DNA of 64,000 bases from Candidatus Leucobacter sulfamidivorax. Its GTDB lineage: Bacteria; Actinomycetota; Actinomycetes; Actinomycetales; Microbacteriaceae. The position numbers and the translations under genes were made by a program. Numbering within the stretch: the stretch's first letter is position 1; each line of letters starts with the position of its first letter. Shown here piece after piece: positions 7,716-39,656 of the stretch. The notes below the pieces were generated by a model. The model saw only the letters and a list, made by a program, of their open reading frames with translations. It searched no databases and had not been told where the DNA came from. The stretch covers positions 744,001 to 808,000 of the forward strand of contig QZLF01000002.1 of assembly GCA_016771945.1 (NCBI GenBank), written 5' to 3'.

Positions 7716-7758
7716 TTGTCCCCATTCGCTCGTCTCGACTATTCTCGACATATGTCGA
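7716..7758 (+). promoter_or_regulatory. Candidate leaderless promoter and palindrome over the pucR-type start
   Basis: TTGTCC at 7716-7721, an 18-bp spacer, and TATTCT at 7740-7745 place a start site at about the A of the ATG at 7752. There is no Shine-Dalgarno, so leaderless translation is likely. A perfect 14-bp palindrome, TCGACATATGTCGA, spans 7745-7758 and includes the start codon. It fits the TCNAC-N4-GTNGA pattern seen at six other promoters in this window. Confidence 0.5.
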
Positions 7759-9029
7759 AACGGGCCGGCGCCTTCGTGGAGGGCCTCAGCGAGGTGCAGG
7801 AGCTGGTCGACGACCTCGCCGCCGATCTCGGGCGCTCGGTCACGGTGGACAACCCCGAGTTCGAGTTCGTGTGCGCGAGCGCGCAGACCGGCCCGATCGA
7901 CGGGCCGCGCATCGCCGCGATCATCGACCGCGCCCCGCCGCGCGGCCCGCTGCCGTGGCTGCTCGGGCACGGCATCGAGACCGCGACCTCGCCGGTGCGG
8001 ATCGCGGCGAACGAGGAGCACGGCCTGCTCGCCCGCATCTGCTTCCCGGTGCGCGGCGAGGAGGGCGAACTGCTCGCGTACCTCTGGCTGTTCGACGAGC
8101 CCCGCGTCGAGGCCGCCGAGGTCGAGCGCACGCTCGAGACGGTCGCGGCGCTGGCCGCGGTCATGATCGGCGGCGACCGGGCGCTCCTCGCCAGGGTCGA
8201 GGAGGCCCGCGCGCACGCGGACGGAGTGCTCGCTTCTCGGGCGGGAGCGCTCGAGGCCGCGATCGCCGGCGGATACCTCGCGGTCGAGGGTGAGCTCCTC
8301 GTGCACGTGGCCCGGCTCGCCGACGCGGTGGACGGCTCGCCGCGCATCGGCCAGGGAGCGCTGGTGCGACGGCTGCTCGCCGCCCTCCATCGCGGTCGCC
8401 CCGGGTGCGGCTTCCTGCTCTCCGAGAGCGCGGCCGGACTCGTGGTGATCGAGCGCAGCCGCGGCGGCGACGACACCGGGCGCACGCTTCGACGACTGGA
8501 GCGGGCGGTCGCGGATGCGGATGCGGAGCTCGTGTCGGTCGGATCCGCCGGATGCGCGACGTCCTCGCCGATCGACGCCTGCGTGCGTCGTGCGCGCTTC
8601 AGCGCCGAGGTGGCCGCGCTGATCGGGCACCGCGACGGCCCGCTCGCCTGGGAGGATCTCGGCGCGTGGCGGCCGCTGATCGGGTGGAGCCTCGACCGCG
8701 ACGCGATCGCCGGCATCAGCCCCGACGCGGAGCGACTGCTCTCATCGGACGCGCGCGACTACGCCGACACGCTCGTCGCCTATCTCGACCACGCGCGGAA
8801 CACCACGGAGACGAGCGGGGCCCTCTTCATCCACCGGGCGACGCTGCACTACCGGCTGCAGCGCGTCCGAGCGGTGCTCGGGGACGAGGCGCTGGACGAC
8901 GGCTGGCGCGCGACGGCGCTGCATATCGCGCTGCGGCTGCACTCCGCGTTGCAGGATCGTGCACTCCAGGAGCGTGCATTGCAGGATCGTGCGCTGCGGG
9001 ACGCGGCGCGGCGGACGCGCCCTCAGTAG
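7752..9029 (+). CDS. PucR-family transcriptional regulator
   Basis: 425 residues. The C-terminal PucR-type HTH is clear (about 340-395; DTLVAYLDHARNTTETSGALFIHRATLHYRL). The N-terminal two thirds resemble the GAF/linker sensor region of CdaR/PucR regulators. It is divergent from the 2-oxoacid decarboxylase and ends convergently with hpaI, the two stops overlapping by 7 bp. It probably controls the decarboxylase and perhaps the arylacetate genes (inference). The C-terminus carries a four-unit pentapeptide repeat. There is no SD, and the start seems leaderless. Confidence 0.85.
   Translation: MSKRAGAFVEGLSEVQELVDDLAADLGRSVTVDNPEFEFVCASAQTGPIDGPRIAAIIDRAPPRGPLPWLLGHGIETATSPVRIAANEEHGLLARICFPVRGEEGELLAYLWLFDEPRVEAAEVERTLETVAALAAVMIGGDRALLARVEEARAHADGVLASRAGALEAAIAGGYLAVEGELLVHVARLADAVDGSPRIGQGALVRRLLAALHRGRPGCGFLLSESAAGLVVIERSRGGDDTGRTLRRLERAVADADAELVSVGSAGCATSSPIDACVRRARFSAEVAALIGHRDGPLAWEDLGAWRPLIGWSLDRDAIAGISPDAERLLSSDARDYADTLVAYLDHARNTTETSGALFIHRATLHYRLQRVRAVLGDEALDDGWRATALHIALRLHSALQDRALQERALQDRALRDAARRTRPQ
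8946..9005 (+). repeat. 15-bp tandem repeat encoding the pentapeptide tail of the PucR protein
   Basis: Four 15-bp units encode ALQDR, ALQER, ALQDR and ALRDA directly before the C-terminal ARRTRPQ. Units one and three differ by only one or two bases. The segment is helical and strongly charged, beyond the end of the normal PucR HTH, and looks like a recent repeat expansion. Confidence 0.75.
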
Positions 9030-9853
9030 CTCCCGCGCGGCGACGCGCTCGCCGCATCGCCGTCCCCGCCGCCCTCCGGGATGAAGCGGTCGACCAGGGC
9101 CTCGCTCTGCCGCGCGAGCATCGCCACGTCCGCGCCGACCGCCACGAAGGAGGCCCCCGCCTCGATGTAGCGCTCGGCGTCGGCCGGCACGAAGGCGTTG
9201 ACGCCGACGGGCTTGCCCGCGGCCCGGCCCGCCTCGATCGCGCGCAGCACGTTCGCGACGACCTCCGGATGCGACTGCTGGCCGATGCGCCCCATCGACG
9301 CCGCCATGTCCGAGGGTCCGACGAAGAGCGCGTCGACGCCGTCCACCGCGGCGATCGCCTCGACGTTCTCAGCTGCCGTCGCCGACTCGATCTGCACGGT
9401 CAGGCTGATCGTCTCGGCCGCGCGCTGCAGGTAGCCGTCGACGCGGTTCCACCTCGCCGAGCGGGCGAGCGCCGAGCCGACGCCGCGCACCCCGTTCACC
9501 GGGTAGTGCACGGCGCGCACGACCTCCTCTGCCTGCGCGACCGTGTCGACCATGGGGATGAGCAGGTTCTGCGCGCCCAGGTCGAGGAACTGCTTGATGA
9601 TCACCGTGTCGCCGACCGGCGGTCGCACGAGCGGCGCCACGGGGTAGGCCGACATCGCGTAGAGCTGGGCGAGCACCGACTCGAGGCCGTTGGGGGAGTG
9701 CTCGGCGTCGAGCAGCACCCAGTCGCAGCCGCTCGAGGCCATGATCTCGGCGGTGATCGGGCTGCCCGCGCAGGCCCACAGTCCGATGAGCGGGCGATCG
9801 CTCTCGCGCAGCCGCTCGGTGAGCGTCGGGGGCAGGCTCAGGCGAATCGGCAC
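9023..9853 (-). CDS. hpaI: 4-hydroxy-2-oxoheptane-1,7-dioate aldolase
   Basis: Class II HpcH/HpaI aldolase of 276 residues from a GTG at 9853 that overlaps the end of hpaH by 16 bp, indicating translational coupling. Motifs fit HpaI: the base His in LDAEHSPN, the Arg in PLVRPPVGD, the metal Glu in VQIESATA and Asp in FVGPSDMA. It cleaves HHED to pyruvate and succinic semialdehyde, the last step of the homoprotocatechuate meta pathway. The C-terminus is slightly extended (GGGDGDAASASPRGSY). Its stop overlaps that of the convergent PucR gene. Confidence 0.93.
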   Translation of the reverse strand: MPIRLSLPPTLTERLRESDRPLIGLWACAGSPITAEIMASSGCDWVLLDAEHSPNGLESVLAQLYAMSAYPVAPLVRPPVGDTVIIKQFLDLGAQNLLIPMVDTVAQAEEVVRAVHYPVNGVRGVGSALARSARWNRVDGYLQRAAETISLTVQIESATAAENVEAIAAVDGVDALFVGPSDMAASMGRIGQQSHPEVVANVLRAIEAGRAAGKPVGVNAFVPADAERYIEAGASFVAVGADVAMLARQSEALVDRFIPEGGGDGDAASASPRGSY

Positions 9854-11566: not shown

Positions 11567-11590
11567 TCCGTCGTCCTCCTCATCCGCCGG

Positions 11591-11757: not shown

Positions 11758-11839
11758 TAGGCGGCCGCGAGACCGCCCGTTCGCGGGCTTCGTTTCGGAT
11801 TCGTGATGTTTCAAGAGGATTTCGGGACTTGTGTTTTTG

Positions 11840-11853
11840 TCAACGTCCGTAGA
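11840..11853. promoter_or_regulatory. Candidate operator upstream of the ABC importer (site F)
   Basis: TCAAC-GTCC-GTAGA, with four of five pairs symmetrical, sits about 130 bp before the binding-protein start in an AT-rich promoter-like segment. It shares the TCNAC-N4-GTNGA core with sites at 7745, 31036, 33481, 35441, 35497 and, weakly, 39641. Confidence 0.45.
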
Positions 11854-11984
11854 AAATGAAATTCGACAGCACGCCGAGGTGATGCTCGCCCCGACTCCGA
11901 AGCGCTCAGCGCCGACGGTCGGCGGGAGGGGATCCGGTGCCGCTTTCACCCACATCCATGTCCAGGCAACCGAGAGAAGAAGAC

Positions 11985-13529
11985 ATGAAGAAAACACTGA
12001 TGGGCCTTGCGGCGGTCGCCGCCGCCGCGCTCGCCCTGACCGCCTGCGCGGGCGGTTCCGACGGCTCCGGCGGAGGCGGAGGCGAGGGCCAGGCCGAGGG
12101 CGGCACGCAGCTGCGCATCGGCAACTTCCTCGACGTCACCTCCTGGGATCCCTCGAGCGCCGACATCGGCTTCGACGGCCCCTACCTGTCGGCCATCTAC
12201 GACCCGCTCCTCGCGATCAACGACAAGGGCGAGCCGCAGCCCGCGCTCGCGACCCAGTGGGAGACCTCCGAGGACTTCCTCACGATCACGCTCGACATCC
12301 GCACCGACGCGAAGTTCTCGACCGGCACCCCCGTCGACGCCGACGCGGTGGTGAAGAGCCTCGAGTACCTCAAGGACGGCATCCGCTCGAACGAGGCCTA
12401 CCAGAAGGTCGACAGCTTCGAGAAGGTCGACGACGATACCGTCGCGATCCACCTCACCGAGCGCGACGACACGATCCTCTACTTCATGGGTCTCGGCCGC
12501 AGCTACGTCATGGATCCCGAGGCGATCGACGCTGGCACCCTCGCGGAGACCCCGGTCGGCTCGGGCCCCTACACCCTGAGCGCCGACTCGATCCCGGGCG
12601 CCGAGTACAAGTTCGACAAGGTCGCGGACCACTGGGCCGCCGCCGACTTCGCCTTCGATCCGCTCGTGATCACCCCGGCGAACGGCGACCCGACGGCGCT
12701 CCTGAACGGCATGGAGGGCGGTCAGTTCGACCTCATCTACGGCGACCCGACCGGTGTCGAGATGGCACCCGAGAAGGGCTGGAACGTCTCGAGCGACGTG
12801 GCCACCTGGAACGGCCTGCAGATCACCGACCGCACCGGCGAGATGGTGCCGGCGCTCGGCGACAAGCGCGTGCGCCAGGCCCTGAACCTGGCCTTCAGCG
12901 GTGAGGATCTGCTCGCCTCGGTACGCCAGGGCATCGGCGCGGTGACCAACCAGGTCTTCCCCGACGGCGGCGCGGGCAACCTGCCCGAGCTCAACTCGCT
13001 CTACGAGCCGGCCAACATCGAAGAGGCCAAGAAGCTGCTCGCCGAGGCGGGCTACGCGGACGGCTTCGACGTGACCATGCCCATGGCGGGTCCCTTCCAG
13101 GCCTGGCAGCCCACGATCGAGCAGGTGTTCGGCGAGCTCGGCATCCGCGTCACCTTCGACGAGTACCAGTTCCAGGACTACATGGGCAACGTCGGCAACT
13201 ACCCGATGTTCGTCGCGGTGCTCGCCATGGACAGCAACCCGGTCGCCACGGTCGAGCGGCAGATCGCCAACCCGCAGTGGTACAACCCGCGCACCGGCCT
13301 CGACGCCCACCCCGAGATCCAGGCGCAGGTCGACGCGGTGTTCTCCGCCGAGCCCGGCGACGCGCAGATCGCGGAGATCGAGAAGCTGAACACCATGGTG
13401 ACCGAGGAGGCCTGGTTCGCCGTGTGGCTCCAGTCGAACAACTCCTACGTCTCGGCCGCTAACATCGAGGTCCAGCCCGTCGTCGGCATGATGTTCCCGA
13501 CGCTGCGGCAGATCTCGGTCGTCGGCTGA
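11985..13529 (+). CDS. ABC transporter substrate-binding lipoprotein, family 5
   Basis: 514 residues from the ATG at 11985. A signal peptide ends in the lipobox LTAC with Cys21 as the lipid-anchored residue, followed by a Gly/Ser-rich linker. The mature part is an extracytoplasmic solute-binding protein of family 5 (DppA/OppA), with the typical early segment YDPLLAINDKGEPQPALATQWE. It delivers a peptide or similar ligand to the permeases encoded next. The ligand is unknown. First gene of a four-gene importer operon. Confidence 0.93.
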   Translation: MKKTLMGLAAVAAAALALTACAGGSDGSGGGGGEGQAEGGTQLRIGNFLDVTSWDPSSADIGFDGPYLSAIYDPLLAINDKGEPQPALATQWETSEDFLTITLDIRTDAKFSTGTPVDADAVVKSLEYLKDGIRSNEAYQKVDSFEKVDDDTVAIHLTERDDTILYFMGLGRSYVMDPEAIDAGTLAETPVGSGPYTLSADSIPGAEYKFDKVADHWAAADFAFDPLVITPANGDPTALLNGMEGGQFDLIYGDPTGVEMAPEKGWNVSSDVATWNGLQITDRTGEMVPALGDKRVRQALNLAFSGEDLLASVRQGIGAVTNQVFPDGGAGNLPELNSLYEPANIEEAKKLLAEAGYADGFDVTMPMAGPFQAWQPTIEQVFGELGIRVTFDEYQFQDYMGNVGNYPMFVAVLAMDSNPVATVERQIANPQWYNPRTGLDAHPEIQAQVDAVFSAEPGDAQIAEIEKLNTMVTEEAWFAVWLQSNNSYVSAANIEVQPVVGMMFPTLRQISVVG

Positions 13530-13617: not shown

Positions 13618-14559
13618 ATGATCAGATTCACGCTCAAGCGGCTCATCTCCGGCGTGATCCTGCTGTTCGCCGTGGCGATCGGCACCTTCTTCCTCGCGCA
13701 CGCGGCGATCCCGGATCCGACGCTGGGGCTCCTCGGCACCGCGGCCACCCCCGAGGCGCAGCAGGCGCTCGCCGCCAAGATCGGGACGGACCGGCCGCTC
13801 ATGGTCCAGTTCTGGGACTGGTTCACGCATCTGCTGCGCGGCGACTTCGGGGACTCCTGGAAGAACTTCACCCCCGTCGGCAAGCAGATCGCGGTCAAGT
13901 TCCCCGTCACCCTCTCGGTCGTGAGCCTCGCGATCCTGCTCTCCGCCATCCTGGGCCTCGTCTTCGGCGTCACCGCCGGCCTGCGCCCCGGCAGCTGGAT
14001 CGACCGGGCCGTCAAGATCGGCGCGGTCGTGCTCTTCGCCCTCCCGGGCTTCTGGGTGGCGCTCGTGCTCGTCATGGTGTTCGCGGTGCAGCTCAAGTGG
14101 TTCCCCGCGGTTGGCTACGTGCAGCCGGGCCAGTCGATCGGCGGCTGGCTGCTCTCGATCACCCTGCCGGCCGTCGCGCTCGCGCTCGGCGCCGTCGTCA
14201 TGGTCGCCGAGCAGCTGCGCAACGCCATCATTCAGGCCGACGGCCAGGACTACGTGCGCACCCTCCGCAGCCGCGGCCTCCCGTCGTGGCGCGTCACGGT
14301 GCACCTCCTGCGCAACGCCGCGCCCGCATCGCTCACGATCCTCGCGCTCATGTTCGTGGCGCTCCTCTCGGGCGCCGTCGTGGTCGAGAACATCTTCGCG
14401 CTTCCCGGCATCGGCGCGCTGACCCAGGGCTCCTCGCAGAACGGGGACATCCCGATGCTGCTCGGGATCACGGTCGTCGCCGTCGTCTTCGTCGTCATCG
14501 TCAACTTCCTGCTCGACATCCTGCTCGGTTGGATCAACCCGAAGGCCCGCGTCAAATGA
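13618..14559 (+). CDS. ABC transporter permease, DppB/OppB type
   Basis: 313 residues with an N-terminal span (10-30), a periplasmic loop and five further spans. The EAA loop is visible at about 205-235 (DYVRTLRSRGLPSWRVTVHLL). It is the first membrane subunit of the family-5 importer. Its TGA overlaps the next ATG as ATGA, indicating coupling. Confidence 0.93.
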   Translation: MIRFTLKRLISGVILLFAVAIGTFFLAHAAIPDPTLGLLGTAATPEAQQALAAKIGTDRPLMVQFWDWFTHLLRGDFGDSWKNFTPVGKQIAVKFPVTLSVVSLAILLSAILGLVFGVTAGLRPGSWIDRAVKIGAVVLFALPGFWVALVLVMVFAVQLKWFPAVGYVQPGQSIGGWLLSITLPAVALALGAVVMVAEQLRNAIIQADGQDYVRTLRSRGLPSWRVTVHLLRNAAPASLTILALMFVALLSGAVVVENIFALPGIGALTQGSSQNGDIPMLLGITVVAVVFVVIVNFLLDILLGWINPKARVK

Positions 14560-16415
14560 CCGCTCCGCTCACCGACAACATCGACCCGCGCGCGGTGCGC
14601 CGCGGCTCGATCTTCGCGCGCCTCATGCGCCGCCCCGCCGGCGCCATCTCCTTCCTGGTGCTCGTCCTCGTCATCCTGGTCGCGATCCTCGCGCCGTGGA
14701 TCTCGCCGCAGGACCCGAACTTCGTCGATCTCTCGGCCGCCCGCGCGCTGCCGAGCCCCGAGCACTGGCTCGGCGGCGACACCTCGGGCCGCGACGTGCT
14801 CAGCCGCCTCATCTGGGGCACCCAGATCACTCTCTGGGGCGCGCTCGTCGCGATCGTGACCGCCGTCGTGCTGGGCGTGCCCTCGGGCCTCGCCGCCGGC
14901 TACTACGGCGGCGCGACCGACCGCATCGGCACCTGGGTCAGCGACGGCCTGCAGGCGATCCCCGGCATGATCATCCTGCTCATCGTCGCCGCGAGCACCC
15001 GCAACGACTTCACGCTGCTCATGATCACGGTCGGCGTCTTCATGGCTCCCGGCTACTTCCGCCTCACCCGCTCGACCGTGCTCGCCGTGCGCAACGAGGC
15101 CTACGTCGACGCCGCGCGCGTCGCCGGCCTCTCCGACGGCCGCATCATGGCGCGGCACGTGATCCGCCAGGTCTTCGCGCCCATCGTCATCCAGTCCGCG
15201 CTCACCGCGGGCATGGCCATGGGCATGCAGGCCGGCCTGCAGTTCCTCGGCATCGGCGGCGGCACGACCCCGGGCTGGGGCGCCGCCATGAACGAGGGCT
15301 TCCGGGTCATGCGCACCGATCCGCTGCTGCTGCTCTGGCCCTCGCTCGCCCTCGGCATCACGGTCGCCGCGCTCGCGATCCTGGGCTCGACCCTCGCCGA
15401 CGTGATCAGCGTGCAGACACCGACGCTGTCGCGCCGGCAGCGCAAGCGGATCGCCGCGGAGAACGCCGCGAAGCGACCCGCCGATCAGACCGCCTCGACC
15501 ACCGGCTCGATCTCGGTCGCCGCGGTCGACTCGGCCGTGCGGCTCGAGAACCTGCGGGTCAACTACGAGACGCCGAACGGCCCCGTGGAGGTCGTGCACG
15601 GCATCACCCTCGACGTCGCCCCCGGCGAGGTGCTCGGCATCGTCGGCGAGTCGGGATCGGGCAAGTCGCAGACGGTGTTCTCGATGCTCGACCTGCTGCC
15701 GAAGTCGGGCTACTACACGGCCGACGCGATCTGGATCGGCGGCGAGGACGTGACCGCGCTCTCGAAGAAGGACCGGCATCGGCTGCTGGGCGACGAGATC
15801 GGCTACATCCCGCAGGAGCCGATGACGAACCTCGACCCCTCGTACACGATCGGCTATCAGCTCACCGAGCCGCTGCGCGCCGTGCACGGCATGGGCAAGG
15901 GCGAGGCACGGGCCCGGGCGCTCGAGATGCTCACCCGCGTGGGCATCCACGATCCGAAGCGCGTCATGAAGTCGTATCCGCACGAGCTCTCGGGCGGCAT
16001 GGCCCAGCGCGTGCTCATCGCGGGCGCGATCGCGGGCAAGCCCTCGGTGCTCGTCGCCGACGAGCCGACCACCGCCCTCGACGTCACGGTGCAGGCCGAG
16101 GTGCTGGAGCTGCTGCGCGAGCTGCAGCAGGAGTACCACATGGCGCTCGTCATCGTGACCCACAACTTCGGCGTCGTCGCCGACATCTGCGACCGCGTCG
16201 TCGTGATGCGCGGCGGATCGATCGTCGAGATCGACGACGTCGGCCCGATCTTCGCCCACCCCGAGAGCGACTACACCCGAGAGCTCATCGCCGCCTCGCT
16301 GGACGGCGCGGAGAGCCGCGGCGAGCTCGACCGCGAGCTCGCGGGAGCCGCCGCGGGCGGATCGGGCGCGGGATCCGGATCCGGATCCGCCGGTACCGAG
16401 GAGGAGCAGGCATGA
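14556..16415 (+). CDS. Fused ABC permease (DppC-like) and ATPase (DppD-like)
   Basis: One uninterrupted 619-residue frame from the ATGA overlap. The permease half (about 1-300) has the DppC N-terminal region and EAA loop (EAYVDAARVAGLSDGRIMARH). A charged linker (about 295-330) leads to an ATPase half with Walker A GESGSGKSQ, signature LSGGMAQRV and Walker B VLVADEPT. In most importers these are separate genes. The protein ends in a Gly/Ser tail encoded by repeated GGATCC units. It would place one permease and one ATPase permanently in the same complex. The other ATPase gene overlaps its end (ATGA). Confidence 0.92.
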   Translation: MTAPLTDNIDPRAVRRGSIFARLMRRPAGAISFLVLVLVILVAILAPWISPQDPNFVDLSAARALPSPEHWLGGDTSGRDVLSRLIWGTQITLWGALVAIVTAVVLGVPSGLAAGYYGGATDRIGTWVSDGLQAIPGMIILLIVAASTRNDFTLLMITVGVFMAPGYFRLTRSTVLAVRNEAYVDAARVAGLSDGRIMARHVIRQVFAPIVIQSALTAGMAMGMQAGLQFLGIGGGTTPGWGAAMNEGFRVMRTDPLLLLWPSLALGITVAALAILGSTLADVISVQTPTLSRRQRKRIAAENAAKRPADQTASTTGSISVAAVDSAVRLENLRVNYETPNGPVEVVHGITLDVAPGEVLGIVGESGSGKSQTVFSMLDLLPKSGYYTADAIWIGGEDVTALSKKDRHRLLGDEIGYIPQEPMTNLDPSYTIGYQLTEPLRAVHGMGKGEARARALEMLTRVGIHDPKRVMKSYPHELSGGMAQRVLIAGAIAGKPSVLVADEPTTALDVTVQAEVLELLRELQQEYHMALVIVTHNFGVVADICDRVVVMRGGSIVEIDDVGPIFAHPESDYTRELIAASLDGAESRGELDRELAGAAAGGSGAGSGSGSAGTEEEQA

Positions 16416-17257
16416 GCGCGCAGGCACCGCTGCTGACCGCGGAGAACGTGATCGTCGAGTACGGCTCGCGGCGCAAGCCCAACCGGGTGCTGCACGAGGT
16501 CTCGCTCGAGATCGCCCCGGGCGAGTGCCTCGGCCTCGTCGGCGAGTCGGGATCGGGCAAGTCGACGCTCGGCAAGGCGATCCTCGGCCTCGTGCCGGTC
16601 GCCGGCGGCACCATCACCTTCGACGGGCGGGACATCACCCACCTGAAGGGCCGCGCGCGGCGGGAGCTCGCCGCCGACATCCAGGTCGTCTTCCAGGATC
16701 CCTACGGCTCGCTCAACCCCAAGATGACGATCGGGGACATCCTCGCGGAGCCGCTGCTGATCTCCGGCGCGGGCCGCGCCGAGGCGCGCTCGGTGGTGGG
16801 CGAGATGCTCGAGCGCGTGAAGTTGCCGGGAGACGTCGCCTCCCGCTACCCGAGCGAGTTCTCCGGCGGCCAGCGGCAGCGGATCGCGATCGCGCGGGCG
16901 CTCGTGCGCCGGCCGCGGCTCATCATCTGCGACGAGCCCGTGAGCGCGCTCGACCTCACGACCCAGGCGACCGTGCTCGACCTGCTCATCGAGCTGCAGC
17001 GCGACACGGGGGTCTCGTACCTCTTCGTCTCGCACGACCTCGGCGTGGTGCGCCGCATCTGCCACCGGGTCGCGGTGATGTACCGCGGCGAGCTCGTCGA
17101 GGTGGGCGACGGCGATCAGGTGACGCGGGATCCGCAGCACCCCTACAGCCGCCGCCTGCTCGCGGCCTCGCCGGTCGCCGACCCGGCCCTGCAGGCCGAG
17201 CGGCGGGAGGCGTGGCTCGCGCTGCGACAGGAGCAGGCCGCGGTCGCGACGGCCTAG
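16412..17257 (+). CDS. ABC transporter ATPase, DppF/OppF type
   Basis: 281 residues starting in the ATGA overlap, with GAGGAG upstream. It has Walker A GESGSGKST, the Q-loop VFQDPYGSLNP typical of OppF, signature FSGGQRQR, Walker B LIICDEP and the C-terminal oligopeptide-transporter region HPYSRRLLAASP. It is the second nucleotide-binding subunit, pairing with the ATPase half of the fusion protein. Confidence 0.94.
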   Translation: MSAQAPLLTAENVIVEYGSRRKPNRVLHEVSLEIAPGECLGLVGESGSGKSTLGKAILGLVPVAGGTITFDGRDITHLKGRARRELAADIQVVFQDPYGSLNPKMTIGDILAEPLLISGAGRAEARSVVGEMLERVKLPGDVASRYPSEFSGGQRQRIAIARALVRRPRLIICDEPVSALDLTTQATVLDLLIELQRDTGVSYLFVSHDLGVVRRICHRVAVMYRGELVEVGDGDQVTRDPQHPYSRRLLAASPVADPALQAERREAWLALRQEQAAVATA

Positions 17258-17334
17258 GCGTTGCCCGGCCGGTGAGCGAGCTGCGCCGTGCCGAGCCTGT
17301 CGAGGCATCGAGATGATCGGGCGGACGCATCCCG

Positions 17335-31035: not shown

Positions 31036-31051
31036 TTCTACATATGTTGAA
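31036..31051. promoter_or_regulatory. Candidate operator between divergent dehydrogenase and amidohydrolase (site A)
   Basis: TTCTACATATGTTGAA is palindromic in seven of eight pairs and has the TCNAC-N4-GTNGA core. It lies in an AT-rich island between two divergent starts (30970 and 31112), so a bound regulator could control both directions. TATTCT at 31034-31039 could be a rightward -10. Confidence 0.55.
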
Positions 31052-32621: not shown

Positions 32622-33377
32622 TCAGGTCAGCAGCTGCCCGCCGTCGACCGCGAGGCTCACGCCCGTGATGTGCGCCGCTCCCTCGCCCGCGAGGAAGACC
32701 ACGGCCGGGGCGATGTCCTCGACCCGGGCGAGGTCGCCGAGGGGGATGCGATCCGCCCACGCCTTCCGAGCCGGCGAGCCCTCGGGCATGCCCATCTGCA
32801 GCATCGGGGTGAGCACGGGGCCGGGGGCGACGGCGTTCACCCGGATGCCGTGGGCCGCGAGCTCGATCGCCGCCCAGCGCGTGATCGAGTCGACGGCCGC
32901 CTTGCTCGACTCGTAGGCGCCCATGCCGGGGGTCGGCTGGCGTCCGCCGATCGAGGAGATGTTGACGATCGTCCCCCCGCCGCCCGCGGCGATGCGGTGG
33001 CGCGCGAAGCCCTGCACCATGTGGAAGGTGCCGATGATGTTGACGTCGACGATCGAGCGGTACGCCTCGCTCGCGAGCTCGGTCACGGCGCCGTGCACCG
33101 AGAGGATGCCCGCGTTGTTGACGAGCACGTCGACGGGGGTGCCGGCGGCGGCGCGCGCCTCGAATGCGGCGGCGACGGCCTCCGCGTCCGTGATGTCGAG
33201 GGCCAGCGCCTCGGCGCTCGTGCCCTGCGAGCCGAGCGCGGCCGCGGCGGCGGCCACCGCCTCGGCGTCGCGATCCGCGAGGATCACCGAGTCGCCCGCG
33301 GCCTGGAAGGCTCGGGCGATGCCCTGGCCGATGCCGCCGGCCCCGCCGGTGATGAGGACAGTTCTGGGTACGGTCAC
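32622..33377 (-). CDS. Short-chain dehydrogenase/reductase
   Basis: 251 residues from a GTG with AAGGAG seven bases upstream. TGGAGGIG (cofactor), NNAG, the catalytic Ser (NISSIGG) and YESSK are present, so it is a classical SDR. Asp in ADRDAE suggests NAD preference. It probably oxidises a secondary alcohol. Divergent from the AKR at 33564, with site B between. Confidence 0.9.
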   Translation of the reverse strand: MTVPRTVLITGGAGGIGQGIARAFQAAGDSVILADRDAEAVAAAAAALGSQGTSAEALALDITDAEAVAAAFEARAAAGTPVDVLVNNAGILSVHGAVTELASEAYRSIVDVNIIGTFHMVQGFARHRIAAGGGGTIVNISSIGGRQPTPGMGAYESSKAAVDSITRWAAIELAAHGIRVNAVAPGPVLTPMLQMGMPEGSPARKAWADRIPLGDLARVEDIAPAVVFLAGEGAAHITGVSLAVDGGQLLT

Positions 33378-33563: not shown

Positions 33564-34580
33564 GTGACCGCACCCGTCCGGGTTCCCACCCGCAGGCTCG
33601 GCCCCGGCGGGCCGGAGGTCCCCGTGTTCGCGCTCGGATCGTGGAACATCTGGGATCGCATGGAGCCCGAGGAGCGCGTCGCGCTGATCCGCCGCGCCGC
33701 CGAGGTCGGATCCGCCTTCTTCGACGTCGCCTATTACAACATGGGCCCGCACGCCGAGGCCTCCCGCACCGACCTGCTCTTCGGCGAGGCGATCCGCGCG
33801 GCGGGCCTCGCCCGCGATGACTACCGGCTCTGCGGCAAGCTCTGGCTGTGGGAGTACCCGCAGACCGGCTTCGCTGAGCAGATGGACGTCTCGCTCGAGC
33901 GGATCCGCGCGGGCGCCTCGGGGGATTCCGGCGCCACCGACGTGGAGAGCTTCGACACGGTCGTGGTCGGCGACTTCTTCGGCGACATCGACATCGCCCA
34001 GGTCGTGCGCGACGCGCACGCCGAAATCGAGCGCGGCAGCTTCGCGAGCTGGGGCGTCAACAACTGGTCGGCCGACGCGCTGCGGCTCGCGCTCGACACC
34101 GCCGAGGCCGAGGGACTCACCCCGCCCTGCTTCGCCCAGCTGAAGTACGGCCTCGTGCGCCGCAGCATGGCCGAGGGCGAGTTCTACGGCCGCTGGTTCG
34201 AGGAGGGGCGGCTCGCCCTGCAGGCCTCCGACCTCTTCGAGGGCGGCATCCTCGTGGGCAAGCTCTCGCCCCAGCGCAAGATCGGCGCCGATGTGGGCGG
34301 CATCCGCGAGCGGATCGTCGCGGCCTACCCCGAGGTGGAGCGCATCGCGGGGGAGCTCGGCGCGACCCCCGCGCAGCTCGGCATCGCCTTCTGCCTCGCG
34401 AACCCGGCGACGGCGAACGTGCTCTTCGGCGCCTCGTCGGTGCGCCAGTTCGACGACAACCTCGGCGCCCTCGAGGTGCTGGACCGGGTCGGGGCGGAGC
34501 GGATCCGCGAGGCGACCGCCGGGCTCTGGCTCGACCGCGAGGTGCGCGCCGACGGGGTGTGGAAGCCCGCCTCGGCCTGA
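33564..34580 (+). CDS. Aldo/keto reductase-like protein (paralog B)
   Basis: 338 residues from a GTG preceded by GAGGAGG. It is closely related to the AKR at 28838: FALGSWNIWDRM, GKLWLWEYP, WGVNNWSADALR and FGASSVRQFDDNL match block by block. The tetrad His is missing here too (VVVGDFFGD). Two AKR copies in one cluster suggest either reduction of two related carbonyls or formation of a heteromer (inference). Confidence 0.83.
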   Translation: MTAPVRVPTRRLGPGGPEVPVFALGSWNIWDRMEPEERVALIRRAAEVGSAFFDVAYYNMGPHAEASRTDLLFGEAIRAAGLARDDYRLCGKLWLWEYPQTGFAEQMDVSLERIRAGASGDSGATDVESFDTVVVGDFFGDIDIAQVVRDAHAEIERGSFASWGVNNWSADALRLALDTAEAEGLTPPCFAQLKYGLVRRSMAEGEFYGRWFEEGRLALQASDLFEGGILVGKLSPQRKIGADVGGIRERIVAAYPEVERIAGELGATPAQLGIAFCLANPATANVLFGASSVRQFDDNLGALEVLDRVGAERIREATAGLWLDREVRADGVWKPASA

Positions 34581-34673: not shown

Positions 34674-35393
34674 CTACCGCGCGAGGAACTCGATCGCCGC
34701 GGCCCGGAACTCGGGGCTGTCGAGCGCGCCGCGGTGGTCGCCCGGCACCCGCAGCACCTCGGCACGCGGCAGCGCCGCGGCGAGCTCGTCGACGCCCTGC
34801 GCCATCTGGTCGTCGGCGCCCGCGACGAGCAGCGTCGGCACGGCGGGTCCGCCCGACTGCGGGGCGAAGGGCTCCGAGCCGAGGCCGGCGACGAGGCGGA
34901 CGAGCCCGGTCGAATCGCGCCCCGAGGCGCCGATCAGGCCGGCGATCGCTCCGACGACGGGGTGCTGCGGCTCGGCTCCGGCCAGCACGGCCTCGAGCGC
35001 GGCCGCGTCGATCACCGCGAAGGGGTCGAAGGGGCTGACTCCGCCGAGCACCGCGCGCCGCACGCGCGGCGAGGACGCGGGCAGCTCCCAGCCCAGGCGG
35101 CCGCCGAGCGAGTAGCCGACCACGTCGAACTCGCCTTCGGGGGCGACGCTCGCGACGGCGTCGAGGATCTGCGCGACTACCGCGGTCGTGGAGGCCTCGG
35201 TGGCCGCGGCGTCCGGGCTGTCGCCGTGCGAGGGCAGGTCGATCGCGACGACGCCGCGACCCGCGGCGTTCAGCGCCTCGGGCCACCCGGTCGAGAGGTA
35301 GTCGTCCCGCGCGCTCGCGGCGAAGCCGTGGAGCAGCACGACGGGGGGCAGCGCGGCGTCCGCCGCGGGGAAGTGGTGGACGGCGAGAGCCAT
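34674..35393 (-). CDS. Alpha/beta-fold hydrolase
   Basis: 239 residues with HGFAAS (oxyanion region), the nucleophile elbow GYSLGG, Asp in AGADDQM and His in PGDHRG, the complete catalytic triad of MhpC/BioH-type hydrolases. It would hydrolyse a C-C bond, ester or lactone. Divergent from the methyltransferase-like gene, with sites C and D between. Confidence 0.88.
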   Translation of the reverse strand: MALAVHHFPAADAALPPVVLLHGFAASARDDYLSTGWPEALNAAGRGVVAIDLPSHGDSPDAAATEASTTAVVAQILDAVASVAPEGEFDVVGYSLGGRLGWELPASSPRVRRAVLGGVSPFDPFAVIDAAALEAVLAGAEPQHPVVGAIAGLIGASGRDSTGLVRLVAGLGSEPFAPQSGGPAVPTLLVAGADDQMAQGVDELAAALPRAEVLRVPGDHRGALDSPEFRAAAIEFLAR

Positions 35394-35440: not shown

Positions 35441-35456
35441 TTCTATGTTAGTAGAA
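35441..35456. promoter_or_regulatory. Candidate operator near the hydrolase start (site C)
   Basis: TTCTAT-GTTA-GTAGAA, five of six pairs matched, 48 bp upstream of the leftward hydrolase start. A second site (D) lies 50 bp to the right, so each of the two divergent genes has its own copy. Confidence 0.55.
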
Positions 35457-35496
35457 AATAAATCCGAACGACAGGCGGCCCCCTGGACATCTTTTG

Positions 35497-35510
35497 TCTA
35501 CGACTGTAGA
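35497..35510. promoter_or_regulatory. Candidate operator near the methyltransferase-like gene (site D)
   Basis: TCTAC-GACT-GTAGA is perfect in all five pairs and lies 72 bp before the rightward start at 35582. TAGAGT within it could be a -10, so binding would block transcription. Confidence 0.55.
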
Positions 35511-35581
35511 GTTTCCCCGAGAACCGATCGAACGCCGTCGTTCCGCGTCACACCGGGCGACCCGACTTCCAAGGACACGCA

Positions 35582-36556
35582 ATGACCGCCACCCCCGCAC
35601 GCATCGTCGACATCGCCATCGGCTTCATGGGCGCCCGCCAGCTCGACAACGCCGCGCGCATCGGCCTCTTCAAGGCGCTCGCCGACGGCCCCAAGACGGC
35701 CGCCGAGCTCGCGACCGCCACCGCGCACTCGGAGCGTCAGGTGCGCATCCTCGCCGACGCCATGAACGGCCTCGGCCTGCTCGACCGCGCGAACGGCAGC
35801 TACTCGCTCGCGGCCGACTCCGAGAAGTACCTCTCGGGCAAGGGCGGCATCGACCTCACCCCCTTCATCGCCTTCCTCGGCGACATCAGCTACAGGCAGT
35901 GGATCGGCTACGACAAGACCGTCGACACCGACGCGCCGGGCACCCTCGACCTCGACGAGGCCGGCTGGGGCGACTTCATGGCCGGCGTCATGACCTACAA
36001 CGCCCTGCACGCCGAGCAGTTCGGCGAGGCCTTCGACTTCTCGGGCTACCGCGACGCGCTCGACTTCGGAGGCCTTTCGGCGGGCTTCTCCTTCGCCGCG
36101 ATGCAGCAGAACCCCGAGCTCAAGGTCCGCTTCGTCTACGACGAGCGCTTCGGCGAGTCGATCGCCGCGGCCGCTGCCGAGGCCGGGCTGCAGGACCGCG
36201 TCATCGTGGAGGCCGGCCCGACCGAGTCGACCCGCCCCGGCGGCCAGCACGATCTGGTGCTCGTGACCCACGTGCTGCACCGCTTCACCGAGGAGCAGAA
36301 CGTCGGCATCCTGCGGGCCGCCCGCGAGGCCGCCGCCCCGGGCGCGACCCTGATGCTGCTCGAGTTCTTCCTCGACCGCGACGACACCCAGCGCCCCATC
36401 GACGCCCTGCACGCCGGCGAGTACTTCAACATCGACGGCACCGTCGTCTTCCCGATCGAGACGGTCGAGGGGTGGCTCGCCGAGGCCGGCTGGAAGACCG
36501 AGCGCGTGGTGCCGCTGCCCGGCAGCCCCCGCGTGCTCGTCGCCACCGCGGTCTGA
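35582..36556 (+). CDS. O-methyltransferase-like protein with degenerate SAM motif
   Basis: 324 residues. The N-terminal dimerisation/winged-helix domain (about 1-90; GLFKALADGPKTAAELA) and the plant-type O-methyltransferase core are recognisable. The catalytic His region is kept (VTHVLHRFTEEQN, His233). The Gly-rich SAM motif, normally DVGGGxG, is DFGGLSAGFS at 161-170, and the next acidic residue of the SAM site is not clear. It may bind a different ligand or act as a structural subunit. It starts an operon with the two phosphotriesterase-like genes, preceded by operator sites C and D. Confidence 0.8.
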   Translation: MTATPARIVDIAIGFMGARQLDNAARIGLFKALADGPKTAAELATATAHSERQVRILADAMNGLGLLDRANGSYSLAADSEKYLSGKGGIDLTPFIAFLGDISYRQWIGYDKTVDTDAPGTLDLDEAGWGDFMAGVMTYNALHAEQFGEAFDFSGYRDALDFGGLSAGFSFAAMQQNPELKVRFVYDERFGESIAAAAAEAGLQDRVIVEAGPTESTRPGGQHDLVLVTHVLHRFTEEQNVGILRAAREAAAPGATLMLLEFFLDRDDTQRPIDALHAGEYFNIDGTVVFPIETVEGWLAEAGWKTERVVPLPGSPRVLVATAV

Positions 36557-36597
36557 TGACCCTCGCCCCCGTGCTCATCGCCGAGGCGATCGCATGA
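36556..36597 (+). CDS. Possible 13-codon coupling minicistron
   Basis: An ATG overlaps the stop of the methyltransferase-like gene (TGATG) and reads MTLAPVLIAEAIA before a TGA that overlaps the next ATG (ATGA). It bridges the 37-bp gap between the two larger genes. No own SD is seen, so it would work only by re-initiation. The downstream gene has GAGG of its own, so the minicistron may be incidental. Confidence 0.3.
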   Translation: MTLAPVLIAEAIA

Positions 36598-37763
36598 TCG
36601 CCTCGGTGCTCGGCCCCGTCGACCCCGCCGGGCTCGGCACGGTGCTCGCGGCGGAGACGCTGCTGCGCTCGCCGGGGCCGACGCCGAAGTCCTCGGGGGC
36701 GCCGTCCGCGGGCGTGCCATCGAGCGCTCCGGCCGGCGCAGTCGAGTTCGAGCGCGCGCCGGTCGCGATGCCGATGCTCGGCAGGCTCCTGATGGGCGCG
36801 CCGAACCGCGACGACCGCACCCTCGCCGAGCCCGATGCGGAGCGCGCCCTGCGCGAGTTCGCGGCGCCCGGCGGGGGAACGGCGGACGACTGTGCGGCGG
36901 GCGGCCGTGCGGCGGGCGGCCGTGCGGTGGTGGCGCTCGCCGGACGCGGATCGGCGGCGACTCCCGAGGCGCTCGCCCGGCTGGCCGCGGCGAGCGGCGT
37001 GACGATCGTGCGCGGAGTCGCACCGGCGCCGAATCACGGAACGGACGGGGCGGACGGGGCGGATCGGGATCCCGAGCGGATCGAGGCCGTTCTGCTCGCC
37101 GAGCTGGAGGCGTCCGAGCGCCCCGCGGGCGTCGTGGGAGTCGTGCCCGCGGCATCCGCGGGCGACCCGATGGCGGAGGAGCGGATCGCCGCCGCCGCTG
37201 CCGCCGCGCTCCGGGCCGGCGTCGCGCTCGTGCTCGAGACCGGCCCCGACCCCGAGACCGCGGAGCGCTCGCTCGCCGCGATCGACGCCGCGGGGCTCGG
37301 CCGCGACCGCGTCCTGCTCGCGGGCGTCGCGGCGGCGCTGGGCGACCGCGTCGGCGGCGACCGCGGCGACGGAGTCCCCGGCTCGGGCATCGGCGAGGGC
37401 CGGCTCGAGGCGCTGCTCGGCCTCGGCGCCGCGCTCTGCTTCGACGACCTCGGCCGCATCCCGACGGTGCGCACGGTGGTCTCCGACTTCGAGATCGCCC
37501 TCGCGATCCTCCGCTGCGCCGAGCTCGGCGCCGCGGAGCGGGTGGCGCTCAGCTGCGGCATCCGCCGCAAGCACCGGCTCACCGCGTTCGGCGGCAACGG
37601 CCTGGAGTTCGTCGACACCCAGTTCCTGCCGCTGCTCGGCAGGCTCGGCGGCGACGAGGAGCTCGTCGCCGCGGCGGGCGGCGGCAACGCGGTGCGCATC
37701 CTGGCCCGCCGGCCTGCCGGAACGCGGGAAGAGCGGGAAGAGGAAGGAAAGGAGCAGGCATGA
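36594..37763 (+). CDS. Catalytically dead phosphotriesterase-family paralog
   Basis: 389 residues, co-linear with the intact paralog that follows: LGPVDPAGLGTVLAAETLL against LGTVEPADLGPTLMHEHVF, and LRCAELGAAERVALSCGIRRK against AELVADGWASQLVLGGDVCQR. All metal ligands are lost: the HxH is Ala and Thr, the bridging Glu is Val, the two later His are Glu and a non-His residue, and the final Asp is Gly. Two Ala/Gly-rich insertions are seen at about 30-50 and 90-110. The frame is intact with normal codon use, so it is not decaying. It may be a regulatory or structural partner of the next gene product, with which it overlaps by ATGA. Confidence 0.75.
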   Translation: MIASVLGPVDPAGLGTVLAAETLLRSPGPTPKSSGAPSAGVPSSAPAGAVEFERAPVAMPMLGRLLMGAPNRDDRTLAEPDAERALREFAAPGGGTADDCAAGGRAAGGRAVVALAGRGSAATPEALARLAAASGVTIVRGVAPAPNHGTDGADGADRDPERIEAVLLAELEASERPAGVVGVVPAASAGDPMAEERIAAAAAAALRAGVALVLETGPDPETAERSLAAIDAAGLGRDRVLLAGVAAALGDRVGGDRGDGVPGSGIGEGRLEALLGLGAALCFDDLGRIPTVRTVVSDFEIALAILRCAELGAAERVALSCGIRRKHRLTAFGGNGLEFVDTQFLPLLGRLGGDEELVAAAGGGNAVRILARRPAGTREEREEEGKEQA

Positions 37764-38911
37764 GCGGCATCGACTTCGCCGCGATCGGCGCCGGCGGGAA
37801 GAGCGCTCGCCCGGCGGCTCCCGCCGCGATCGATCTCGACGCGCTCGAGATCCCGGATCGCAGCGGCCTCGTGCAGACCGTGCTCGGCACGGTGGAACCC
37901 GCGGATCTGGGCCCGACCCTCATGCACGAGCACGTCTTCCTCGACATCCGCCGCCCGCCGCACTCGCCGAACCCCAGGCCGGGGGAGTGGGACCCCGGCG
38001 CCGAGGATCCCCTGACCATCGAGAACCTCGCCGCGGTACGCCGCGGGCGGCCGAACGCGGACAACGACATCCTCGGCGACTTCGCGCTGATGCTCGACGA
38101 GATCGGCGACTTCGCCCGCCAGGGCGGCGGCACGGTCGTCGAGGTCACGACGGTCGACGCCGGACGCGACGCCCGGGCCCTCGCACGGCTCAGCCGGGCC
38201 TCGGGCCTGAACGTCGTGATGGGCGGCGGCTGGTACCAGAAGGACCTGCACCCCGCCGACTTCGCCGAGCTCGGCCTCGAGCGGCTCACCGCGCTCATCG
38301 TGCGCGACCTGGTCGAGGGGGTCTGCGGCACCGGCGTCCGGTCCGGCGTCATCGGCGAGATCGGCGCCGAGGGCGACCCGATCCACCCGCAGGAGATGCG
38401 CAGCGTGCGCGCCGCGGGCCGCGCCTCCGCGCTCACGGGCGCCCCGGTCACCCTGCACATGGGCGGCTTCGGCGAGGAGAAGCTGCGCGTGCTCGACGCG
38501 CTCGAGGAGGAGGGGGCGGATCCGCGCTCCGTCGTCTTCGGGCACGCGGGCACGATCGCCGAAGACATGGACCTCGCGCGGCGACTGCTCTCGCGGGGCG
38601 TCACGGTCGAGGCCGACTTCCTCGGCACGACCGGCAGCCCCTGGGGGACGCTCTTCCCCTTCACGGACCGGGGCGTGGCTCGGGGCTTCGCCGAGCTGGT
38701 CGCCGACGGCTGGGCCTCGCAGCTCGTGCTCGGCGGCGACGTGTGCCAGCGCATCCAGCTGCGCCGCTACGGCGGGCACGGCTACGGCTACATCGTCGAC
38801 CACTTCCTGCCGACGCTCGCCGAGTTCGGCGTCCCGCCCGAGGACCTCGAGCGCATGATGGTGGGCAACCCCGCGCGGGTGCTGGCCTTCCGGGCGCCGG
38901 GGAAGCGCTAG
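37760..38911 (+). CDS. Phosphotriesterase-family hydrolase (possible lactonase)
   Basis: 383 residues with all binuclear-metal ligands of the PTE/PHP amidohydrolase group: His56 and His58 (MHEHVFLD), bridging Glu200 (GEIGAEG, Glu rather than carbamylated Lys), His233 (LHMGGFGEE), His262 (FGHAG) and Asp327 (LGGDVC). An N-terminal extension of about 35 residues precedes the barrel. Family members hydrolyse lactones or phosphotriesters; in this island of esterases and dehydrogenases a lactone is more likely (inference). ATGA overlap couples it to the dead paralog. Confidence 0.9.
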   Translation: MSGIDFAAIGAGGKSARPAAPAAIDLDALEIPDRSGLVQTVLGTVEPADLGPTLMHEHVFLDIRRPPHSPNPRPGEWDPGAEDPLTIENLAAVRRGRPNADNDILGDFALMLDEIGDFARQGGGTVVEVTTVDAGRDARALARLSRASGLNVVMGGGWYQKDLHPADFAELGLERLTALIVRDLVEGVCGTGVRSGVIGEIGAEGDPIHPQEMRSVRAAGRASALTGAPVTLHMGGFGEEKLRVLDALEEEGADPRSVVFGHAGTIAEDMDLARRLLSRGVTVEADFLGTTGSPWGTLFPFTDRGVARGFAELVADGWASQLVLGGDVCQRIQLRRYGGHGYGYIVDHFLPTLAEFGVPPEDLERMMVGNPARVLAFRAPGKR

Positions 38912-38965: not shown

Positions 38966-39562
38966 CTACGCCCCCACGCGCAGCCGAGCCACGAAGTCGG
39001 CGACCTGCGCCTCCAGGATCGCGGGGTCGAGGTGCTCGGGGTTCACCACGCTCAGCACCGTGGCTCCGATGTTCATCAGCACGATCTCGTCGACGAGCTG
39101 CGCATCCGGCACCGGCGTGATGATGTCGCCGTCCTCGCGCCCCTCGCGCAGGTACCGCATGTAGCTGGCCTTCCAGCTCGTCAGGTGCTCGCCGTAGTCG
39201 TGCTCGATCTCGGTGCTGAAGGCGCAGCGCTCCCAGAACGACAGCAGCACCCGTGCTGCGGTCGCGTCGTCCTCGCCGATCGGCAGCGTGTAGCGCATCT
39301 CGAGCTCGAGCGCCTCGATGCCGCGCTTCCCCTCCAGACGGATGCGCACGCGGTCGCGGATTCGGTTCAGCGAGCGCTCGTAGGCGCCCGCGATGATCGC
39401 GTCCTTGCCGGGGAAGTAGTGCTTGAGCGCTCCGTTGGCGAAGCCCGCCCGCGAGGCGATCTCGCGCATGGTCGCCGCCTCGATGCCGCCCTCGACGATG
39501 AGCTGCCAGGTGACGTCGACGATGTCCTGGCGGCGCTGGTCGTGGTCGATGATCTTGGGCAT
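38966..39562 (-). CDS. TetR-family regulator
   Basis: 198 residues from an ATG with AAGGAA upstream. The N-terminal HTH is clear (IVEGGIEAATMREIASRAGFANGALKHYFPGKDAIIAGAYE, about 25-60), followed by a helical ligand domain typical of BetI-like repressors. Seven palindromes of the TCNAC-N4-GTNGA type occur at promoters in the window and a weak copy lies upstream of this gene, so it is the favoured candidate for the shared regulator. This is inference. Confidence 0.9.
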   Translation of the reverse strand: MPKIIDHDQRRQDIVDVTWQLIVEGGIEAATMREIASRAGFANGALKHYFPGKDAIIAGAYERSLNRIRDRVRIRLEGKRGIEALELEMRYTLPIGEDDATAARVLLSFWERCAFSTEIEHDYGEHLTSWKASYMRYLREGREDGDIITPVPDAQLVDEIVLMNIGATVLSVVNPEHLDPAILEAQVADFVARLRVGA

Positions 39563-39640
39563 GCGGATTCCTTCGGTCTGCGCGGCCGGGCGTCGCGAGC
39601 CGGGTGCGTACCGGTGCGAACGAGCGCGGCTGGAGTTGAA

Positions 39641-39656
39641 TTCCTCCATTGTAGAC
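39641..39656. promoter_or_regulatory. Weak operator copy upstream of tetR (site E)
   Basis: TTCCTC-CATT-GTAGAC keeps the 6-4-6 spacing of sites A to D, with four of six and five of six consensus bases in its halves. It lies 79 bp upstream of the tetR start and next to the terminator of the amine oxidase gene. It would suit weak autoregulation. Confidence 0.35.

What the first reader, a model, noticed from the sequence alone, without database searches (positions are those of the whole stretch)
7745..39656. A shared palindromic operator, TCNAC-N4-GTNGA, at seven promoter regions
Sites at 7745 (TCGAC-ATAT-GTCGA), 11840 (TCAAC-GTCC-GTAGA), 31036 (TTCTAC-ATAT-GTTGAA), 33483 (TTATAC-AAGT-GTAGAA), 35441 (TTCTAT-GTTA-GTAGAA), 35497 (TCTAC-GACT-GTAGA) and weakly 39641 (TTCCTC-CATT-GTAGAC) keep the same half-site and 4-bp spacing, and all lie in upstream regions rather than inside genes. 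They would link the ABC importer, the dehydrogenase/AKR/esterase unit, the amidohydrolase, the SDR, both AKRs, the hydrolase, the PTE operon and tetR into one regulon. The local TetR protein is the favoured binder; PucR, whose start codon lies in the perfect copy, is the alternative.
Basis: partly seen in the sequence, partly recalled or inferred. Interest (0 to 1): 0.72.

Follow-up and report, generated by a model that had tools for sequence, protein, structure and literature searches.

The report
TetR-controlled catabolic regulon in Leucobacter
Six short mirror-image DNA sites in this bacterium's genome are very probably the switches at which one local TetR protein turns a scattered set of import and breakdown genes on and off; the same switch sits before the same genes in many related bacteria, but what compound it senses is unknown.

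Summary
The observation largely holds. Six of the seven sites (31036, 33483, 35441, 35496, 11839, weaker 39641) fit one extended operator, about TTwTwTTCTAC-N4-GTAGAAwAwAA. A matrix from 115 sites of other genomes scores them 43 to 21; the next place in the window scores 7.

The local TetR (38966-39562) is the best-supported binder. Orthologues in Leucobacter, Agromyces, Leifsonia, Amycolatopsis, Microbacterium, Maritalea and Devosia sit among the same genes with the same sites. Of 241 sites in 80 loci none lies inside a homologous gene and 221 lie within 150 bp of a gene start. TetR relatives with changed recognition helices carry changed operators. The ABC importer 20 kb away belongs to the regulon.

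Binding, repression, inducer and substrate are untested. This is a new, well-supported member of a known kind: a local TetR regulon.

The parts
31036..31051 (.). operator TTCTACATATGTTGAA between divergent Zn-dehydrogenase (-) and amidohydrolase (+)
   Evidence: relative-trained matrix score 40.2; relatives carry sites at this junction, e.g. GTCAACGTATGTAGAA
33483..33498 (.). operator TTATACAAGTGTAGAA between divergent SDR (-) and AKR (+)
   Evidence: score 42.8; same junction occupied in relatives; site within 300 bp upstream of AKR2 homologues in 53 of 59 and of SDR in 50 of 65
35441..35456 (.). operator TTCTATGTTAGTAGAA upstream of alpha/beta hydrolase (-) and methyltransferase/PTE operon (+)
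   Evidence: score 41.5; upstream of OMT orthologues (own included) at least one site in 27 of 27 loci, two sites in 22 of 27, reversed control 0 of 27
35496..35511 (.). second operator of the pair, GTCTACGACTGTAGAG; overlaps spacer and -10 of a sigma70-like promoter (35484-35512, +)
   Evidence: score 30.5; promoter scan; paired site in relatives
11839..11854 (.). operator GTCAACGTCCGTAGAA upstream of dipeptide-type ABC importer operon
   Evidence: score 36.0; site upstream of all 20 SBP orthologues incl. own (19 with <=2 mismatches, 1 with 3); none at <=3 mismatches in 6 of 7 paralogues
39641..39656 (.). weaker operator TTCCTCCATTGTAGAC, about 80 bp upstream of the tetR start; possible autoregulation
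   Evidence: score 20.8 against a highest simulated value of 13.2 in the window, but other genome places reach 19.1; similar site upstream of tetR in L067
7744..7759 (.). CTCGACATATGTCGAA over the pucR start codon: claimed copy, rejected
   Evidence: score 7.1; of the TCGAC..GTCGA type found at 20 places; pucR matched in own genome only of 60
38966..39562 (-). TetR-family regulator (TetR_N, TetR_C_6), recognition helix region GFANGALKHYF; proposed binder
   Evidence: Pfam; AlphaFold2 model, mean pLDDT 90.4, all-helical with short helix 43-48; orthologues
11937..13529 (+). SBP_bac_5 solute-binding protein, first gene of importer operon
   Evidence: Pfam
13618..16415 (+). ABC importer permease (13618-14559) and permease-ATPase (14556-16415)
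   Evidence: Pfam
29855..30970 (-). Zn-dependent dehydrogenase (ADH_N, ADH_zinc_N)
   Evidence: Pfam (on a longer reading of the frame); NCBIfam
28838..29800 (-). aldo/keto reductase 1, probably co-transcribed with ADH
   Evidence: Pfam; order ADH-AKR1-EST in relatives
27802..28836 (-). HSL-type esterase (Abhydrolase_3)
   Evidence: Pfam
26780..27799 (-). second HSL-type esterase (Abhydrolase_3); start codon not settled
   Evidence: Pfam
25542..26804 (-). MFS transporter, Bcr/CflA subfamily; possible end of the operon
   Evidence: Pfam and NCBIfam TIGR00710 above cut-off; follows the esterases in L042 and L054
31112..32536 (+). Amidohydro_3 amidohydrolase
   Evidence: Pfam
32622..33377 (-). 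short-chain dehydrogenase/reductase
   Evidence: Pfam
33564..34580 (+). aldo/keto reductase 2 (best solved match AKR6D1)
   Evidence: Pfam; PDB sequence search
34674..35393 (-). alpha/beta hydrolase
   Evidence: Pfam
35582..36556 (+). O-methyltransferase-like protein (Dimerisation + Methyltransf_2)
   Evidence: Pfam
36594..37763 (+). PTE-like protein, weak match to the C-terminal part only
   Evidence: Pfam E 3e-6
37760..38911 (+). phosphotriesterase-family hydrolase
   Evidence: Pfam

Best explanation
The six supported sites are operators of the TetR-family protein encoded at 38966-39562. Its dimer binds TTCTAC-N4-GTAGAA palindromes with AT-rich flanks at the promoter of an ABC importer operon and at three divergent promoter regions (Zn-dehydrogenase-AKR-esterases / amidohydrolase; SDR / AKR; alpha/beta hydrolase / methyltransferase-PTE-PTE), and perhaps weakly at its own promoter. 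Shown here by computation: the sites, their conservation before the first genes of the same units, co-occurrence with the TetR, and a match between recognition-helix class and operator class. Inferred: that it is a repressor that covers the promoter (overlap seen at one promoter only), that an imported substrate or an early pathway product releases it, and that the enzymes form one breakdown pathway for a small ester-, lactone- or carbonyl-bearing compound. The compound is unknown.
For: A matrix from other genomes ranks exactly these six first in the window. The best whole-genome pattern matches lie here. In 80 loci around TetR homologues 241 sites were found against 15 for the reversed pattern; 0 of 241 lie in homologous genes (which cover 50% of the sequence; control 9 of 15), 221 lie within 150 bp of a gene start, median 64 bp. 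First genes of units carry sites (AMID 41 of 47, AKR2 53 of 59, SDR 50 of 65, OMT 55 of 74, SBP 19 of 28); genes inside units do not (AKR1 0 of 35, PERM1 0 of 47, PERM2-ATPase 0 of 32, EST 0 of 19). SBP orthologues occur in the same 19 of 36 other same-genus genomes as the close TetR orthologue, and all 20 with the own have the site. OMT and close TetR orthologues share 23 other same-genus genomes; 1 has only OMT, 2 only TetR. Sites with <=1 mismatch: 20 of 20 same-genus genomes with the TetR (59 places, not all in the cluster) against 6 of 17 without (7 places); reversed control 36 and 33 places (summed by me). Helix class against core (<=1 mismatch) within 400 bp upstream of tetR: NGALKxYF 18 of 80 TCTAC, 0 TCACC, 0 AGACC; HGA[IL]xRYF 23 of 25 TCACC (reversed 2), 0 TCTAC, 0 AGACC; HSA[FL]ARYF 6 of 7 AGACC, 4 of 7 TCTAC.
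Against: No binding or expression data. Only 20 of 91 TetR homologues have a site (<=2 mismatches) within 300 bp of their own start, and 39641 scores little above two unrelated genome places (19.1 and 17.8), so autoregulation is not secure. At two mismatches the helix classes blur: 80 NGALK genes have TCTAC 44, TCACC 15, AGACC 21 (reversed 1, 7, 6), and 4 of 7 HSA-class genes carry a TCTAC-type hybrid. Nine of 80 loci (L046, L061, L066, L091, L094, L103, L106, L109, L111) have no site at <=2 mismatches. In L046 and L061 no gene of this cluster was found in the locus, but the five Streptomyces loci have cluster genes and only 1-2 core matches each. Site numbers alone do not exceed the reversed control genome-wide; place and conservation carry the case. 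Helix classes are probably single clades (no tree made), so the helix-operator match may rest on few events.
Confidence: 0.9

Rival explanations
1. Another regulator, such as one of the TetR paralogues elsewhere in the genome, binds these sites, alone or together with the local TetR.
For: Five paralogues of the same subfamily lie on C3 and C10; 4 of 7 HSA-class tetR genes carry TCTAC-type hybrid sites, so cross-talk is possible.
Against: The own-genome paralogue regions (L156-L158) hold no TCTAC core at <=1 mismatch; the best-scoring palindromes of L156 and L158 are GCCTCC-N4-GGAGGC and GTCACC-N4-GGTGAC. The motif follows TetRs with the NGALKxYF helix.
Confidence: 0.06
2. PucR (7752-9029) binds the sites, the copy at its start codon being the autoregulatory one.
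For: The 7745 copy is a perfect TCGAC-N4-GTCGA palindrome and the gene has a PucR HTH.
Against: No match at E<=1e-30 in the other 59 genomes while the sites are conserved in many genera; the 7745 copy scores 7.1 and is of a type found at 20 places in the genome.
Confidence: 0.01
3. The palindromes are a by-product of AT-rich -10 elements in a GC-rich genome, or chance.
For: The operator flanks are AT-rich and one site overlaps a -10; the loose consensus does not exceed chance in the window, and the strict pattern does not exceed its reversed control genome-wide.
Against: Conserved N4 spacing and GTAG halves before the same genes in several genera, reversed control 15 against 241 in those loci and 0 of 27 upstream of OMT.
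Confidence: 0.02

Closest known systems
TetR-family local repressors of catabolic clusters (KstR and BetI types)
   Same: TetR_N plus a BetI-type C-terminal domain; palindromic operators at several promoters of a catabolic and transport cluster (recalled for KstR).
   Different: NCBIfam models for BetI and KstR match far below their cut-offs (53 of 118 and 46.4 of 280 bits); gene content here differs; operator difference from KstR is recalled, not compared; inducer unknown.
TetR structure 2nx4 (organism Rhodococcus is recalled, not in the listing)
   Same: Closest solved sequence, E 3e-33 over residues 1-181.
   Different: The listing names only 'Transcriptional regulator, TetR family protein'; no operator or function seen; not examined further.
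Comparative-genomics regulons with factor-motif correlation (IclR, LacI and MerR families)
   Same: Same kind of inference: conserved sites, regulon content, and correlation of protein residues with motif (PMC8222616, PMC4052901, PMC5045206: titles and starts of abstracts seen; papers not opened).
   Different: Those treat other families; no paper on this TetR group appeared in the searches.

Membership tests
TetR family of regulators | N-terminal TetR_N helix-turn-helix domain above the curated cut-off | tested here: met
   PF00440, 49.6 bits against 24
TetR family of regulators | all-alpha fold with separate C-terminal ligand/dimer domain | tested here: met
   AlphaFold2 model, nine helices, mean pLDDT 90.4; PF13977 33 bits against 27. 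Dimer not modelled, no fold search made
TetR family of regulators | binds a palindromic operator and is released by a ligand | not testable with these tools
   only indirect support for operator binding
BetI (choline-binding repressor) | passes the NCBIfam BetI equivalog cut-off | tested here: not met
   NF001978 53 bits against 118; TIGR03384 48.8 against 201.3
KstR (cholesterol catabolism repressor) | passes the NCBIfam KstR cut-off | tested here: not met
   46.4 bits against 280
Local TetR regulon | operators before the first genes of neighbouring units, conserved with the regulator | tested here: met
Local TetR regulon | autoregulation | tested here: inconclusive
   weak site at 39641 (20.8); 20 of 91 homologues have a site within 300 bp upstream, seen in the Amycolatopsis loci mapped

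The most novel reading that the evidence does not exclude
Leucobacter and its relatives hold a set of paralogous TetRs, several of them beside dipeptide-type ABC importers, that keep one palindrome geometry (N4 spacing) but have split into operator dialects readable from a few residues of the recognition helix: NGALKxYF with TCTAC, HGA[IL]xRYF with TCACC, HSA[FL]ARYF with AGACC. Hybrid operators before some HSA-class tetR genes would link the modules into a cascade. This would be a natural helix-to-operator code, and the class met here governs an unrecognised breakdown pathway shared by several actinobacterial genera and by two alphaproteobacteria (Maritalea, Devosia).
Probability: 0.5. Interest if true: 0.55.

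Novelty: new member of a known kind. Interest (0 to 1): 0.42.

Why it matters
It gives an operator and a regulon to a TetR group for which no study turned up in the searches. It ties an importer 20 kb away to the enzyme cluster and gives a direct handle for finding the inducer, and so the substrate, of a pathway shared by several genera. The paralogues with changed helices and changed operators offer a compact natural test of how TetR proteins change DNA specificity while avoiding cross-talk.

Tried and rejected
Rejected: the 7745/pucR site and PucR as binder. Rejected as too loose: the consensus TCNAC-N4-GTNGA. Three extra genome hits were looked at: C1:1184785 (score 17.8) lies inside a 403-aa frame; C2:50719 (19.1) and C4:154967 (12.2) lie outside the frames of 60 aa or more with GC3 above 0.75; none was followed further. 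Only pattern-selected stretches and paralogue regions of the genome were scored with the matrix, not the whole genome.

Led nowhere: naming the substrate. Pfam, NCBIfam and PDB sequence searches gave only broad families. The plasmid collection gave one match, in Embleya, with no annotated feature under it. Six paper searches found nothing on this regulon (listings and starts of abstracts only, no paper opened). The script was faulty: it printed many loci instead of five Streptomyces ones, and its output was not used. The output was cut between L068 and L081; five loci (L068, L070, L071, L073, L080) were mapped again and all are counted. The structure was predicted but no fold search was made. 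Of the proteins in the failed, five were family-searched later; the others (among them window 5913-6970, 6012-7700, 9023-9829, 15500-16415, 16523-17317, 45228-46340, 46234-47925) were not.
Full report
What was claimed.

Is it there, and is it more than chance? All seven sequences exist. The consensus as written does not stand out in the window: 17 matches with up to one mismatch against 23.3 expected. It has 35 exact places in the genome (reversed pattern 7); by my count of the list 20 of these are TCGAC-N4-GTCGA, and only 3 have T or A at both variable positions, all three in the window. The longer motif is another matter. TTCTAC-N4-GTAGAA has 3 places with one mismatch in 3.84 Mb, all three within 4.4 kb of this window, and 19 places with up to two, 5 in the window. 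Its total is not high (the reversed control gave 35 in the genome); its clustering is the point. KTCWAC-N4-GTAGAA with up to one mismatch gives 7 places, 5 in the window.

Matrix from other genomes. I collected 115 distinct sites with at most two mismatches from loci L035-L081 around TetR orthologues and built a palindromic matrix with eight flanking bases. It shows information out to position -5 (T/A-rich), strong T, C, T, A, C in the half-site, and a weak preference inside the spacer. In the window it ranks 33483 (42.8), 35441 (41.5), 31036 (40.2), 11839 (36.0), 35496 (30.5) and 39641 (20.8) first, then 7744 at 7.1. In 200 simulated windows the maximum averaged 3.6 and reached 13.2. The training sites were chosen by likeness to the core, so core scores are partly circular; the flanks were not chosen. 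Among the other genome stretches that I scored, C2:50719 reaches 19.1 and C1:1184785 17.8, so 39641 is not outstanding genome-wide.

Relatives. A protein search found the TetR in 52 of 299 related genomes at E<=1e-25, paralogues and the own genome included; 80 named loci of 123 found were kept. In these 80 loci the motif (at most two mismatches) occurs 241 times, the reversed control 15 times. None of the 241 falls inside a gene homologous to the window's genes, which cover half of the sequence (control 9 of 15), and 221 lie within 150 bp of a gene start, median 64 bp. The genes with a site within 300 bp upstream are first genes of units: AMID 41 of 47, AKR2 53 of 59, SDR 50 of 65, OMT 55 of 74, SBP 19 of 28, ABH 29 of 64, ADH 22 of 47, TETR 20 of 91. 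Genes inside units have none: AKR1 0 of 35, PERM1 0 of 47, PERM2-ATPase 0 of 32, EST 0 of 19, PTE 0 of 9. Nine of 80 loci have no site at this strictness; five are Streptomyces loci that do have cluster genes and 1-2 looser core matches each. Maps of five further loci (three Amycolatopsis, one Actinocrispum, one Prescottella) show TetR with OMT in all five and hydrolase, AKR2 and SDR in four, with sites at the junctions.

The distant importer. In Microbacterium the SBP-permease-ATPase importer lies inside the same cluster as the TetR, with a site in front. In Leucobacter it lies apart, as in the window, yet its orthologues occur in the same 19 of 36 other same-genus genomes as the close TetR orthologue, and all 20 (own included) have the site about 100 bp upstream, 19 with at most two mismatches and one with three. 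Of seven paralogues six have none at three mismatches, and the seventh (L141), beside a TetR with helix YANGALKYYF, has two perfect sites. Upstream of OMT orthologues 27 of 27 loci (own included) have at least one site and 22 have two, as at 35441/35496; control 0. OMT and close TetR orthologues share 23 other same-genus genomes; one broken assembly (G038) has only OMT, and G042 and G044 only TetR.

Who binds? With the TetR orthologue present, 20 of 20 same-genus genomes have a site with at most one mismatch (59 places, not all in the cluster). Without it, 6 of 17 (7 places). The reversed control hardly differs (36 and 33 places; sums). The stronger argument is the match of protein and DNA. 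TetRs of this subfamily with helix NGALKxYF lie beside TCTAC operators, including homologues only about 40% identical in Microbacterium, Maritalea and Devosia. Those with HGA[IL]xRYF have TCACC within 400 bp upstream (23 of 25; reversed 2; none with TCTAC), and those with HSA[FL]ARYF have AGACC (6 of 7), 4 of the 7 also a TCTAC-type site (examples). At two mismatches the separation is less clean: the 80 NGALK genes have TCTAC 44, AGACC 21, TCACC 15, against reversed 1, 6, 7. Paralogue regions of the own genome carry no TCTAC core. The residues lie in the short helix 43-48 of the predicted model, the expected recognition helix (recalled). PucR had no match at E<=1e-30 in the other 59 genomes.

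How it works. Most likely a TetR dimer blocks the promoters. Direct sequence support for promoter overlap exists at one place, a TGGACA-17-TAGAGT promoter at 35484-35512 whose spacer and -10 are covered by the 35496 site; elsewhere it is inferred. A ligand made available by the importer or the first enzymes would release it. The enzymes (two aldo/keto reductases, Zn-dehydrogenase, SDR, two HSL-type esterases, an alpha/beta hydrolase, an Amidohydro_3 hydrolase, a methyltransferase-like protein, PTE-family hydrolases) suggest breakdown of a small ester-, lactone- or carbonyl-bearing compound. This is a guess of low confidence.

Known or new? The mechanism is the ordinary local TetR regulon. The protein fails the BetI and KstR equivalog cut-offs. 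No paper on this group appeared in six searches of the held library (listings and starts of abstracts only). I call it a new member of a known kind; the helix-to-operator correspondence among paralogues is the part with most to offer.

Noticed in passing
own genome C3:694074, C3:718985, C10:702, C10:8419, C10:10321 (L156-L158): Five TetR paralogues of the same subfamily; palindromes near several of them differ from the window's (GCCTCC-N4-GGAGGC, GTCACC-N4-GGTGAC, AGACC-N4-GGTCT).
   Followed up: partly
L037:6329, L039:6394; G015:C8:164638, G017:C1:3069661, G019:C1:611535: Hybrid operators with a TTCTAC half and a GGAGAA half just upstream of HSA-class tetR paralogues, which suggests cross-regulation between modules.
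   Followed up: no
window 750-5798: Extradiol dioxygenase-like, aldehyde dehydrogenase, GntR/FCD regulator and FAA hydrolase-RraA fusion: looks like a homoprotocatechuate-type cluster (name recalled). Its homologues lie directly beside the TetR in L040 and L046.
   Followed up: no
window 36594-37763: PTE-family-like protein matching Pfam only weakly at its C-terminal part, ahead of a full PTE; in the rows seen it is 39-48% identical to relatives, the full PTE 61-80%.
   Followed up: no
window 39718-41901, 41932-43323, 43154-44734: Copper amine oxidase, AraC-type regulator and GMC oxidoreductase next to tetR. The AraC and GMC frames overlap as called from the first start codon, so a start is probably wrong.
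   Followed up: no
window 7752-9029: PucR-type regulator without a match at E<=1e-30 in 59 other genomes, possibly acquired.
   Followed up: no
L083 3176-4528: A 450-aa reading frame between AKR2 and the importer in Microbacterium, whose end resembles HNH-type proteins (recalled), a likely insertion.
   Followed up: no
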